Under the pieces are notes generated by a model. It made no database searches, was not told where the DNA came from, and was given only the letters and a program-made list of their open reading frames with translations. From Ruegeria sp. TM1040 (lineage in GTDB: Bacteria; Pseudomonadota; Alphaproteobacteria; Rhodobacterales; Rhodobacteraceae), in the NCBI RefSeq assembly GCF_000014065.1, contig NC_008044.1, forward strand, positions 1,449,501 to 1,513,500: a stretch of DNA of 64,000 bases, written 5' to 3'. Below, piece after piece: positions 38,118 through 41,243 of the stretch. Both the position numbers and the translations under genes were made by a program. The number at the start of each line of letters is the position of its first letter. Position 1 is the first letter of the stretch.

Positions 38118-38194
38118 GTTAAAAACCTTTTGCATCTCAGGGGCACGCCCCTATGTATGAGGAACACGGTGCAAGGGAAACCCAGGAACACGAC

Positions 38195-38647
38195 ATGTCC
38201 GGCGAAACCGATCTGATCAAGCTCTACTCCACCAAGATCCTCGCACTGGCGGCTGATATTCCCCATCTTGGGCATCTCGAGCAGGCCGATGCCACGGTAA
38301 AACGCCGCTCGCCGCTTTGCGGATCAACAGTGACGGTGGATGTGACCCTTGAGGACGGAAAAGTCGCGCAGTTTGCGCAGGACGTCAAAGCCTGCGCTTT
38401 GGGTCAGGCTGCAGCTGCCGTTGTGGGCGCCGCCATCATCGGACGCAGCGCTGCCGAGGTGGAGCGGGCCCGTGATCAGCTGAAGGCAATGCTCACCGAA
38501 GGCGGGCCGGTGCCGGAGGCTCCGTTCGACGGGCTCGAAGTACTGATCCCTGCGCGGGACTTCAAAAACCGTCACGCCTCGATCATGTTGGCGCTAGAGG
38601 CCACGCTGGAGGCGATGCAAACGGCGCAAAAAGCAGACTGCGCCTGA
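38195..38647 (+). CDS. IscU/SufU-like iron-sulfur scaffold family protein
   Basis: 150-aa protein with the U-type scaffold fold: LIKLYSTKILALAADIPHLG, C42 in RRSPLCGSTVTVDV, and C67 in DVKACALGQAAAAVVGAAI. The third cluster ligand of classical IscU/SufU, a Cys at the start of the last helix, appears to be replaced: the segment reads NRHASIMLALEATLEAM with Ala in place. The only other Cys is near the C-terminus. It may therefore hold a cluster differently or act as a transfer protein. The start MSGETDLIKLY follows AGGAAC. It is divergent from hisI and not in an isc/suf operon. Confidence 0.85.
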   Translation: MSGETDLIKLYSTKILALAADIPHLGHLEQADATVKRRSPLCGSTVTVDVTLEDGKVAQFAQDVKACALGQAAAAVVGAAIIGRSAAEVERARDQLKAMLTEGGPVPEAPFDGLEVLIPARDFKNRHASIMLALEATLEAMQTAQKADCA

Positions 38648-38729: not shown

Positions 38730-38836
38730 TCATGCGGGACCCGGTGGGCACCAATCACCAGAAACGAAGTTTCTGGTGCGGATCGAACAGGCAATCGATC
38801 CTAACACGGGACTTGAGGCTGGTGCCCCCGGCATGA
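38730..38836 (-). ncRNA. Candidate structured RNA element (three-way junction)
   Basis: A long closing helix is formed by TCATG, CCGG and GGGCACCA (38730-38753) pairing with TGGTGCCC, CCGG and CATGA (38820-38836), with one bulged T and one 6-nt bulge. Inside it sit two perfect hairpins: a 10-bp stem CACCAGAAAC/GTTTCTGGTG with a 3-nt loop (38756-38778) and a 6-bp stem GGATCG/CGATCC with a 10-nt loop (38780-38801). The minus-strand terminator just after it suggests it is the 3' part of the SOS-box transcript or a separate small RNA. I do not recognise a known RNA family; strand is inferred from the terminator. Confidence 0.55.
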
Positions 38837-38883: not shown

Positions 38884-39006
38884 TCAGACGAGACCCGGAA
38901 GATGCAGGCCCACGATCAACATCACGACCAAAGCGGCCGCACCGAGAGTATCCTGCAGCAATGTGGATTGTGCGTTGCGCAGCGCGGTTTTGAATTGCGT
39001 GACCAT
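38884..39006 (-). CDS. 40-aa single-span membrane microprotein under a LexA-type box
   Basis: Too short for normal gene calling. The frame runs from ATG at 39006 to TGA at 38884. An AGGAGG ribosome site lies 7 bases before the ATG, the best seen in this window. Residues 1-18 (MVTQFKTALRNAQSTLLQ) are polar and helical; residues 21-38 form a hydrophobic segment suited to one transmembrane helix. A GAACN7GAAC box (the alphaproteobacterial LexA site) lies 81 bp upstream. Size, topology and control recall SidA of Caulobacter, a 29-aa SOS-induced membrane inhibitor of division, but I cannot show homology. It could also be a small toxin. No other promoter is evident. Confidence 0.75.
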   Translation of the reverse strand: MVTQFKTALRNAQSTLLQDTLGAAALVVMLIVGLHLPGLV

Positions 39007-39086
39007 CTGAAAACCTCCTCGATCTCTGTCTGACGTTTGCAACGTCTTGTTGTCCTTTTGTTCTCATTTTAAGCGAGTCGTGTAAA

Positions 39087-39121
39087 GAACTTTCTAAGAA
39101 CATTTGCGAACAAACTGGAAC
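39087..39121 (-). promoter_or_regulatory. LexA (SOS) box with two extra half-sites
   Basis: GAAC-N7-GAAC at 39087-39101 is the exact alphaproteobacterial LexA operator (GTTCN7GTTC on the minus strand). Two further GAAC half-sites follow at 39108-39111 and 39118-39121 with 6-bp gaps. A TTTACA that could be a -35 element abuts the box at 39081-39086, and a near-match GTTG-N7-GTTC lies at 39049-39063 nearer the gene. The site sits between the recG stop and the 40-aa gene, and points at the latter. Confidence 0.7.
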
Positions 39122-39152: not shown

Positions 39153-41243
39153 TTAGCCGACTGAAATCAACCGGATAGCCTCATCCTGACGCAACAACCA
39201 CAAGAGCGTTCTTGCTGCGCGCCCGCGCGCACTGGAGAGATCGGGATCCGAGGTCATCAATGCGCGCGCATCGCTTTGCGCGATTGCCATCAGATCCGAC
39301 TGACGCTCGAGATCCGCGATATGGAACCGTGGCAAACCAGATTGTGCCGTGCCGATGACGTCTCCGGCACCGCGCATTTGCAGATCGGTTTCGGCGATGA
39401 CAAATCCATCTTCGCTCTCGCGCAGCACCTCGAGCCGCTTGCGTCCGCCTTCGGTCAGGGGCGGCTGATACATCAGCAAACAGGTGGACTGCGCCTCGCC
39501 GCGCCCCACCCGTCCCCGCAATTGGTGCAGTTGGGCAAGGCCAAAGATCTCGGCACGTTCGATCACCATGATCGACGCGTTGGGGACATTGACCCCGACC
39601 TCGATCACGGTGGTCGCCACCAGAACACGGGTGCGGCCTTCTTGAAACGCGAGCATGGCGGCATCTTTTTCCGCTGGCGGCATTTGGCCATGCACCAGCC
39701 CCACCACCTCCTCGCCCAAGACCGCGCGCAGGTGTTTGAACCGCTCGTCCGCAGCGGTCAGATCCATCACCTCGGATTCCTCAACCAGCGGGCAGACCCA
39801 ATAACACTGCCGTCCCTCGTCGATGGCACGACGCAGGTGGTCCACAACCTCGGACATCCGCTCTGTGCTCAGAATCGCAGTCTTGATCGGTTTGCGTCCT
39901 GGCGGTTTTTCATCGAGGATCGAGACCTCCATATCGCCATATTGGGTCAACGCCAGCGAGCGCGGAATCGGCGTCGCGGTCATGACAAGAACATCCGCGC
40001 GCTTGCCTTTTTCAGCCAGTTCCATGCGTTGCCGCACGCCAAAGCGGTGCTGTTCATCGACGATCACGAGGCGCAGATCGTCAAAGACGACATCTTGCTG
40101 GAACACCGCATGAGTGCCGACAAGAATATGGATGTCGCCCCGCGCGAGGGACTCCAGTTTGGCGCGACGGTCCTTGCCCTTGTCGCGTCCGGTCAGGATC
40201 TCAAGAACGACACCGGCGTCTTCGGCAAGCGGCTTGAGCCCTTCAAGATGTTGCCGCGCAAGGATTTCTGTCGGCGCCATCATCACACCCTGACCGCCAG
40301 CCTCGACCGCAACCAGAAGCGCCATGAAACCGACCAGCGTTTTCCCCGCTCCCACGTCGCCTTGCAGCAAACGGTTCATGCGCCGCTCAGAGCCCATATC
40401 GGCGGTGATCTCTTCTATGGCTCGCCCCTGCGCCCCGGTGGGGCGATAGGGCAATGTGGCAAGCACCTTTCTCTGCAGCGTGCCCGTCGCGACTGACCGC
40501 CGTCCCGGCAGGTCCCGCTCCACCGAGCGGGCAATCGCAAGTGTAAGCTGGTGCGCAAAAAGCTCGTCATAGGCAAGGCGCGCGCGCGCCGGGGCCTGTG
40601 CGCCTAGATCCTCCAGCGTCGCGGGCGCATGTGCGGCAGAAATCGCCGCGTGCCAATCCGGCCAGCCCTGTTTCGTTTTTTGCGCGGGATCCATCCACTC
40701 TGTGAGATCCGGCACCCGCGCAAGGGCGCTCTGGACGGCCTTGTACATGGTTTTTTGGGTGATGCCGTGTGTCAGATGATAGACCGGCTCAAAGTCCGGA
40801 ATGTCCCCGGCTTCTTCTAGCGGCAGCATGTGTTCGGGGTGGACCATCTGAGCCATGCCATCAAATAGCTCAAGCTTGCCCGAAACCACACGCCGCGCGC
40901 CTTCCGGCAATTGCGCGGTCAGATACCGGCTTCGGCCGTGGAAAAAGACCAGCTGAAACTCAGTCTCCTGGTCCGTCACGTCGATGCGATAGGCACCGCC
41001 CCGGTTGCGGGCCGGACGATGGCGCCCCACGGTGACTTCGACCGTTGCGGTCGTCGGCAGATCCAACCCCCGGATGGTTTCGCGCCTACGCCGGTCAACA
41101 ACGCTGTATGGCAGCGAGAACAGAAGATCGCGGGGGGCCGTGATATGCAGCTGCGCAAAATGCTCGGCAATCTTTGGTCCGACGCCTTGCAAGGTCTCAA
41201 GTTCCGCGAAAAGCGGGAACAATTGTTCTGGGCGACCGCTCAT
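39153..41243 (-). CDS. recG: ATP-dependent DNA helicase RecG
   Basis: Branch-migrating helicase that regresses stalled replication forks. The 696-aa protein has an N-terminal wedge domain (about 1-250). Its helicase core has Walker A LLQGDVGAGKTLVGFMAL (about 292-309), motif Ia MAPTEILARQH, the DEAD-type VIVDEQHRFGVRQR (about 388-401), motif III VMTATPIPRSLALT, and the C-terminal QLRGRVGRGEAQSTCLL with the RecG tail. It begins 7 bp downstream of ligA on the same strand, so two DNA-repair genes are linked. Confidence 0.97.
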   Translation of the reverse strand: MSGRPEQLFPLFAELETLQGVGPKIAEHFAQLHITAPRDLLFSLPYSVVDRRRRETIRGLDLPTTATVEVTVGRHRPARNRGGAYRIDVTDQETEFQLVFFHGRSRYLTAQLPEGARRVVSGKLELFDGMAQMVHPEHMLPLEEAGDIPDFEPVYHLTHGITQKTMYKAVQSALARVPDLTEWMDPAQKTKQGWPDWHAAISAAHAPATLEDLGAQAPARARLAYDELFAHQLTLAIARSVERDLPGRRSVATGTLQRKVLATLPYRPTGAQGRAIEEITADMGSERRMNRLLQGDVGAGKTLVGFMALLVAVEAGGQGVMMAPTEILARQHLEGLKPLAEDAGVVLEILTGRDKGKDRRAKLESLARGDIHILVGTHAVFQQDVVFDDLRLVIVDEQHRFGVRQRMELAEKGKRADVLVMTATPIPRSLALTQYGDMEVSILDEKPPGRKPIKTAILSTERMSEVVDHLRRAIDEGRQCYWVCPLVEESEVMDLTAADERFKHLRAVLGEEVVGLVHGQMPPAEKDAAMLAFQEGRTRVLVATTVIEVGVNVPNASIMVIERAEIFGLAQLHQLRGRVGRGEAQSTCLLMYQPPLTEGGRKRLEVLRESEDGFVIAETDLQMRGAGDVIGTAQSGLPRFHIADLERQSDLMAIAQSDARALMTSDPDLSSARGRAARTLLWLLRQDEAIRLISVG

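What the first reader, a model, noticed from the sequence alone, without database searches (positions are those of the whole stretch)
38884..39121. SOS-box-controlled 40-aa membrane microprotein, a possible SidA-like division inhibitor
The sequence shows a GAACN7GAAC LexA operator (39087-39101) with two further GAAC half-sites. It lies 81 bp upstream of a 40-codon ORF with an ideal AGGAGG site and one predicted transmembrane helix. Known biology: GTTCN7GTTC is the LexA site of alphaproteobacteria, and Caulobacter SidA is a LexA-controlled membrane microprotein that blocks FtsW/FtsN. Inference: this gene is a SOS-induced microprotein, perhaps a division checkpoint, next to recG. It is too short for normal annotation.
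Basis: partly seen in the sequence, partly recalled or inferred. Interest (0 to 1): 0.75.

Follow-up and report, generated by a model that had tools for sequence, protein, structure and literature searches.

The report
Conserved SOS membrane microprotein beside recG
A 40-amino-acid membrane protein that the protein-family libraries searched do not describe sits behind the repair gene recG across most of one bacterial family, under a promoter that looks controlled by the DNA-damage repressor LexA, and is probably a damage-induced brake, most likely on cell division.

Summary
Conservation decides it. The 40-aa ORF is matched in 260 of 296 genomes of its family, evolves as coding sequence (pN/pS 0.28), and follows recG on the same strand in 144 of 145 distinct loci within 400 bp. 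An exact GTTCN7GTTC lies upstream in 74 of 75 distinct protein-found loci. A LexA matrix trained only on lexA and mmcB promoters ranks these two boxes first and second in the 64-kb window. Of 13 readable recG loci in genomes where the protein model failed, 10 still carry LexA-type boxes and a one-helix ORF. No Pfam or NCBIfam family describes it. LexA control: about 90%. A SidA-like division inhibitor is the best explanation (about 50%): anatomy fits, but no target, binding or induction was tested, and SidA homology could not be examined.

The parts
38884..39006 (-). Microprotein gene, 40 codons plus stop; one predicted membrane helix
   Evidence: 260 of 296 family genomes match the profile; pN/pS 0.278 in 17 same-genus sequences; AlphaFold2 single helix 2-39, pLDDT 83
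39014..39019 (-). Shine-Dalgarno AGGAGG, 7 nt before the ATG
   Evidence: sequence
39087..39101 (-). LexA-type box 1, GTTCTTAGAAAGTTC
   Evidence: exact GTTCN7GTTC in 74 of 75 distinct protein-found loci; second-best LexA-matrix site in the window, 11.3 bits
39049..39063 (+). LexA-type box 2, opposed orientation, GTTGTCCTTTTGTTC, over the predicted -10 and start
   Evidence: best LexA-matrix site in the window, 14.3 bits; GAACN7CAAC on the coding strand in 68 of 74; perfect GAACN7GAAC in several diverged genomes
39108..39111 (-). Upstream half-site GTTC, 10 bp from box 1
   Evidence: GTTC here in 63 of 74 distinct protein-found loci
39118..39121 (-). Second upstream half-site GTTC; weakly conserved
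   Evidence: sequence; low conservation in the profile
39081..39086 (-). -35 hexamer TTTACA
   Evidence: positions 15-20 of the profile; TTTACN in 69 of 74, TTG-type in 5 of 74; TTGACA-type variants
39058..39063 (-). Predicted -10 region (GAACAA), 17 bp from the -35; poor match to TATAAT
   Evidence: inference from spacing and conservation; the consensus scan finds no promoter here
39051..39051 (-). Predicted transcription start (A of CAACA)
   Evidence: inference from position and conservation
39153..41243 (-). recG, directly upstream on the same strand
   Evidence: recG tail within 400 bp upstream, same strand, in 144 of 145 distinct loci

Best explanation
A one-gene SOS unit. In undamaged cells LexA occupies two opposed operators, one against the -35 and one over the -10 and start site, and keeps the promoter shut. 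After DNA damage RecA triggers LexA cleavage, and a short-leader mRNA with a good ribosome site makes a 40-residue membrane protein: a basic N-terminal half in the cytoplasm and one uncharged membrane helix ending a few residues after a conserved L-x-L-P. Its conserved face (D19, G22, L26, L34, P37) docks on a membrane partner. The likeliest partner is the septal cell-wall synthase (FtsW/FtsI/FtsN), so that division pauses until repair is done: the job that SidA does in Caulobacter, done here by an unrelated or unrecognisably diverged protein. Shown by sequence: gene, conservation, promoter anatomy, synteny. Inferred: LexA binding (about 90%), N-in single-pass topology (about 90%), division inhibition (about 50%), FtsW-type target (about 40%).
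For: Frame conserved: pN/pS 0.278, entropy per codon position 0.67/0.25/1.30, 30% identity after the stop. 260 of 296 family genomes match. recG upstream in 144 of 145 distinct loci. Conserved promoter block; rigid pattern in 212 of 296 genomes, at most one each, none in the reversed control. LexA matrix trained on other genes: the two boxes rank 1 and 2 in the window; best site of the locus is box 1 in 63 and box 2 in 7 of 75 distinct protein-found loci, both in the top two in 58. Diverged genomes keep boxes and a one-helix ORF: 3 of 20 by promoter and 10 of 13 by recG. Helix and one conserved face. SOS-induced one-helix proteins SidA and YneA act at FtsW (passages seen).
Against: No binding, induction or phenotype data. 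Box 1 scores below typical lexA/mmcB boxes (median 15.0 against 21.0; the window's is 11.3), and shuffled windows give about one site of that score each. Box 2 is usually degenerate (CAAC for GAAC). The -10 is far from consensus and the promoter scan finds none. 3 of 13 readable recG loci of profile-negative genomes have neither box nor ORF. The FtsW target rests on analogy; DinQ, also LexA-controlled with one helix, does not affect filamentation (passages seen).
Confidence: 0.5

Rival explanations
1. SOS-induced membrane-depolarising peptide of the TisB/DinQ type, which slows metabolism or favours persistence.
For: Small, one helix, LexA-type control; DinQ is a 27-aa LexA-controlled inner-membrane peptide that lowers membrane potential and ATP (passages seen).
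Against: No sequence conservation in the leader after the start region or after the stop that would suggest an antisense RNA, no shared leader fold among 20 loci folded, no Rfam match above threshold. Near-universal single copy beside recG rather than patchy. The membrane helix has no polar face (hydrophobic moment p=0.55). TisB/DinQ leader features are partly recalled.
Confidence: 0.2
2. SOS-induced regulator of another membrane protein (transporter, protease, kinase or respiratory complex) rather than of division.
For: Many one-helix proteins under 50 aa work this way (general knowledge); one conserved face suggests a specific partner without naming it.
Against: The SOS-linked one-helix proteins with a known partner in the papers seen act on the divisome; nothing links this locus to another complex.
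Confidence: 0.22
3. The boxes belong to another direct-repeat regulator, or LexA acts here mainly as an activator; the gene is not a classical SOS gene.
For: Box 1 has an unusual right half (AGTTC, where lexA/mmcB boxes mostly have TGTTC) and sits just upstream of the -35 with extra repeats at 10-11-bp spacing, a place where activators also bind. Dual activity of R. sphaeroides LexA is recalled, not seen.
Against: The lexA/mmcB matrix still picks both boxes as best in most loci; diverged genomes show perfect GAACN7GAAC over the start region.
Confidence: 0.07
4. Chance ORF and chance box.
For: In the window alone the box is no more frequent than expected.
Against: Conservation of frame, promoter and synteny.
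Confidence: 0.01

Closest known systems
SidA (Caulobacter crescentus)
   Same: LexA-controlled, very small, one inner-membrane helix, alphaproteobacterial (passages seen)
   Different: 29 aa against 40; different order; no profile relative outside the family in the class sample; target of the present protein unknown; SidA sequence not compared
DidA (C. crescentus)
   Same: Small one-helix DNA-damage-induced division inhibitor
   Different: 71 aa and controlled by DriD, not LexA
YneA (Bacillus subtilis)
   Same: SOS-induced; one membrane helix that docks on FtsW
   Different: YneA has a LysM domain that it needs; no LysM or other domain here
SosA, ChiZ (Gram-positive)
   Same: SOS-induced small membrane division inhibitors
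   Different: They have extracellular parts needed for or proposed in function; here only a few residues follow the helix
DinQ, TisB (E. coli)
   Same: LexA-controlled one-helix peptides
   Different: Type I toxin-antitoxin loci with antisense RNAs; no such element seen here

Membership tests
LexA (SOS) regulon of alphaproteobacteria | GTTCN7GTTC operator in the promoter, conserved across relatives | tested here: met
   74 of 75 distinct protein-found loci
LexA (SOS) regulon of alphaproteobacteria | Operator resembles those of known LexA targets in the same family | tested here: met
   Matrix from 30 lexA and 22 mmcB boxes; best site of the locus is box 1 or box 2 in 70 of 75. Scores are lower than at lexA/mmcB
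LexA (SOS) regulon of alphaproteobacteria | LexA binding and RecA-dependent induction | not testable with these tools
   needs footprint and expression data
SidA | LexA-controlled protein with one inner-membrane helix, about 30 aa | tested here: met
   predicted only: helix 2-39, hydropathy and charge pattern; 40 aa in most members, 30-32 aa in two Paracoccus loci
SidA | Sequence relation to SidA | not testable with these tools
   SidA sequence not available; the 2011 paper is not held
SidA | Blocks division through FtsW/FtsN | not testable with these tools
   needs experiment or co-folding
DidA | SOS-independent control, about 71 aa | tested here: not met
   40 aa with LexA-type boxes
YneA | LysM domain | tested here: not met
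   no Pfam LysM in 59 members; no room for one in 40 aa
Type I toxin-antitoxin (TisB/DinQ) | Antisense RNA antitoxin | tested here: inconclusive
   no conserved element outside promoter and ORF, no Rfam match above threshold; RNA-seq needed
Any Pfam, NCBIfam or PHROGs family | Profile match | tested here: not met
   NCBIfam 0 of 59 members; Pfam 1 of 59, DUF826 at E 0.0077, taken as chance; PHROGs none for the window protein

The most novel reading that the evidence does not exclude
A family-wide SOS effector with no described relative, controlled by LexA through two opposed operators that clamp the core promoter (LexA perhaps also acting as an activator at the upstream repeats), whose membrane target is not the SidA site but a new control point linking DNA damage to division or envelope synthesis.
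Probability: 0.25. Interest if true: 0.85.

Novelty: new variant of a known kind. Interest (0 to 1): 0.72.

Why it matters
How the Rhodobacterales group (roseobacters, Rhodobacter, Paracoccus) holds back division after DNA damage did not come up in the papers that my searches listed. This names a specific, nearly universal gene of the family with a readable promoter, in a group with several laboratory species. If it is the checkpoint, it is one more independent way in which SOS stops septation through a membrane helix. It also shows that promoter plus synteny can find microproteins that have diverged beyond profile search.

Tried and rejected
Bare GTTCN7GTTC counts as evidence: rejected (94 in the genome; 1 against 2.05 expected in the window). 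L029 was a chance protein match inside a longer frame and was dropped. Relatives outside the family by profile: one partial match (model positions 1-19 in a 245-codon frame), judged chance. Hidden relatives behind recG elsewhere in the class: 0 of 64 readable loci had an exact box and none passed my matrix-plus-ORF filter (68 loci taken, of 101 genomes outside the family with recG; 4 loci had no readable recG tail). Plasmid or phage copies of the window protein: no match. Leader riboregulator: no shared fold in the 20 loci folded; one Rfam match far below threshold. No fold search was run: a single helix is uninformative. Papers: ten searches ran; none of the listed titles or abstracts describes this gene, but the library holds only CC-licensed papers and the lists are capped.

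Ascertainment: the 80 loci were fetched by a pattern that contains box 1, so box 1 counts that include them are biased; the counts given are for protein-found loci. Of these 75 distinct loci, those are the best-scoring ones and 20 were picked by me from the listed matches for spread. Sixteen of the 36 profile-negative genomes were not listed and not examined. Profile matches near E 0.01 were not checked one by one. Shine-Dalgarno statistics are not used, because start choice at the pattern-found loci used the SD score.

Full report
What is in the window. On the minus strand, between recG (39153-41243) and a convergent gene (38153-38647), lies a 40-codon ORF (38884-39006) with AGGAGG seven bases before its ATG. 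By itself it is not significant: one match in the window with 2.05 expected, 94 in the genome, where the reversed control pattern is at least as frequent.

The gene is real. The 40-aa sequence matched 36 of 61 genomes at E up to 1, the last hits weak; one of the 30 loci taken, L029, is false. A profile of 25 members matched 260 of 296 genomes of the family at E up to 0.01; the tally by genus is 259 of 295. In a class-wide sample of 387 genomes it matched the 6 of the family and one other, the latter over model positions 1-19 only. In 17 same-genus sequences pN/pS is 0.278 (0.86 and 3.1 in the two other frames), entropy per codon position is 0.67/0.25/1.30, and identity is 68% in the ORF and 30% after the stop. 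Of 75 distinct protein-found loci, 66 have exactly 40 residues. recG lies within 400 bp upstream on the same strand in 144 of 145 distinct loci; in the other, L196, it is upstream but further off. The convergent neighbour of the window is recognisable downstream, convergent, in 122 of 152 loci, duplicates included.

The promoter. Anchoring 74 distinct upstream regions on the box shows a conserved block from -11 to +53: GTTC-N6-GTTC-N7-GTTC-TTTACA, about 11 free bases, aaaTGAGAACAAA, four bases, CAACA. The hexamer is TTTACN in 69 of 74 and TTG-type in 5; TTGACA also occurs. I read it as a sigma-70 -35. At 17-bp spacing the -10 would be GAACAA and the start the A of CA; this is inference, and the consensus scan finds no promoter here. 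Promoters without T at -7 are the majority in Alphaproteobacteria (PMC8407463, abstract and passages seen). GAAC-N7-CAAC (68 of 74) across the -10 and start is a degenerate LexA-type box in the opposite orientation. The pattern GTTCN7GTTCTTTACN15TGAGAACAAA with at most 2 mismatches occurs in 212 of 296 genomes, at most once in each by the table, and not at all as reversed control. At 76 of these 80 my filter found a DxxG ORF of 32-42 aa behind the promoter. The other four, read by eye: two Paracoccus loci with a 30-32-aa form, one Planktomarina locus with a longer form, one cut at the locus end.

Is it LexA? The matrix comes from 52 boxes of lexA (30 of 30 loci with a box) and mmcB (22 of 30) promoters. 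In the window its two best sites of 127,962 scored are box 2 (14.3 bits) and box 1 (11.3); a third, unrelated site follows at 11.0. Ten windows shuffled in two-base blocks gave on average one site at or above 11.3 and one in all at or above 14.3, so each site alone is weak; the pair in one promoter is what counts. In the 75 distinct protein-found loci the best site is box 1 in 63, box 2 in 7, another site within 150 bp upstream in 4, elsewhere in 1; both are the top two in 58. Against: box 1 scores lower than lexA/mmcB boxes (median 15.0 against 21.0), mostly because of A instead of T before the second GTTC.

Genomes where the protein profile failed. Of 36, 20 were listed and examined. Three have the promoter and behind it ORFs of 38-43 aa with a helix-like stretch. 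In the other 17, recG proper was found in 14; one is cut at a contig end; of 13 readable, 10 have LexA-type boxes and a 36-42-aa one-helix ORF right after recG and 3 have neither. Seven of the 10 show a perfect GAACN7GAAC, in G068, G018 and G118 36-38 bp from box 1 as in the main group. This was not built into the search and supports both the box 2 reading and near-universality.

The protein. AlphaFold2 gives one helix, residues 2-39, mean pLDDT 83. D19 and G22 are present in 59 of 59 aligned members, L34 and P37 in 58, L26 in 56. Conservation in residues 19-37 has a helical face (p=0.014 by shuffling; 0.021 for 18-38; 0.059 for 2-18), hydrophobicity there has not (p=0.55); the N-terminal part is amphipathic (p=0.03). 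Residues 1-17 carry 2.4 K/R on average and the last 16 residues carry no charge in any of 139 distinct proteins of at least 38 aa. By the positive-inside rule this is N-in, C-out.

How it most likely works. LexA holds the promoter at both operators; damage releases it; the peptide inserts and binds a membrane partner by its conserved face. Near-universal single presence beside recG, a short leader (12-81 nt, median 31, from the predicted start), no conserved antisense element and no operon partner speak for a chromosomal checkpoint effector rather than a toxin-antitoxin module. The SOS-induced one-helix proteins with a known target in the papers seen block septal synthesis at FtsW: SidA (PMC4211646, passages seen) and YneA (PMC13396833, passages seen; it also reports low-confidence models placing SidA, SosA and ChiZ on FtsW). 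Division arrest is therefore the best bet, by analogy. DinQ (PMC3567139, passages seen) is the precedent for another role.

Literature. A Dinoroseobacter shibae study lists in-silico LexA sites at lexA, recA, dprA and others; the passages seen do not mention this locus, and the text has no occurrence of recG (PMC6473078). The listings of my ten searches show no description of it. The R. capsulatus lexA paper and the 2011 SidA paper are not held.

Organism. The window's genus contains Tritonibacter multivorans (G011 contig 43 and record NZ_CYSD01000043.1 both have 284,761 bases). The chromosome length 3,200,938 fits my recollection of Ruegeria sp. TM1040; recalled, not tested.

The odds did not need to change.

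Noticed in passing
L092 1501-1515 and L107 1501-1515 (own genome, contig C3): Strong LexA-matrix sites (21.6 and 18.7 bits) beside genes of 445 and 454 aa that match no Pfam family: possible further unknown SOS genes.
   Followed up: no
L054, L096, L103 around 1501 (own genome): High-scoring boxes (21.1, 19.1, 19.0 bits) near DJ-1/PfpI, GFA and radical-SAM genes.
   Followed up: no
window 39032-39046: Inverted repeat GACGTTTGCAACGTC in the predicted leader; no shared fold among the 20 leaders folded.
   Followed up: partly
window 38756-38778: Perfect inverted repeat CACCAGAAAC-GAA-GTTTCTGGTG between the microprotein gene and its convergent neighbour, without a T tail.
   Followed up: no
L197 and L264 (Paracoccus): Same promoter followed by a 30-32-aa version that lacks most of the N-terminal half (regions printed).
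   Followed up: partly
lexA promoters L131, L133-L135, L137, L147, L149, L150, L153, L155: Triple GAAC repeats with an 11-bp period (two overlapping boxes) in 10 of 30 lexA promoters.
   Followed up: no
window 39162-39230: Rfam RF02866 at 23 bits, far below its threshold of 48, inside the recG end; taken as chance.
   Followed up: no
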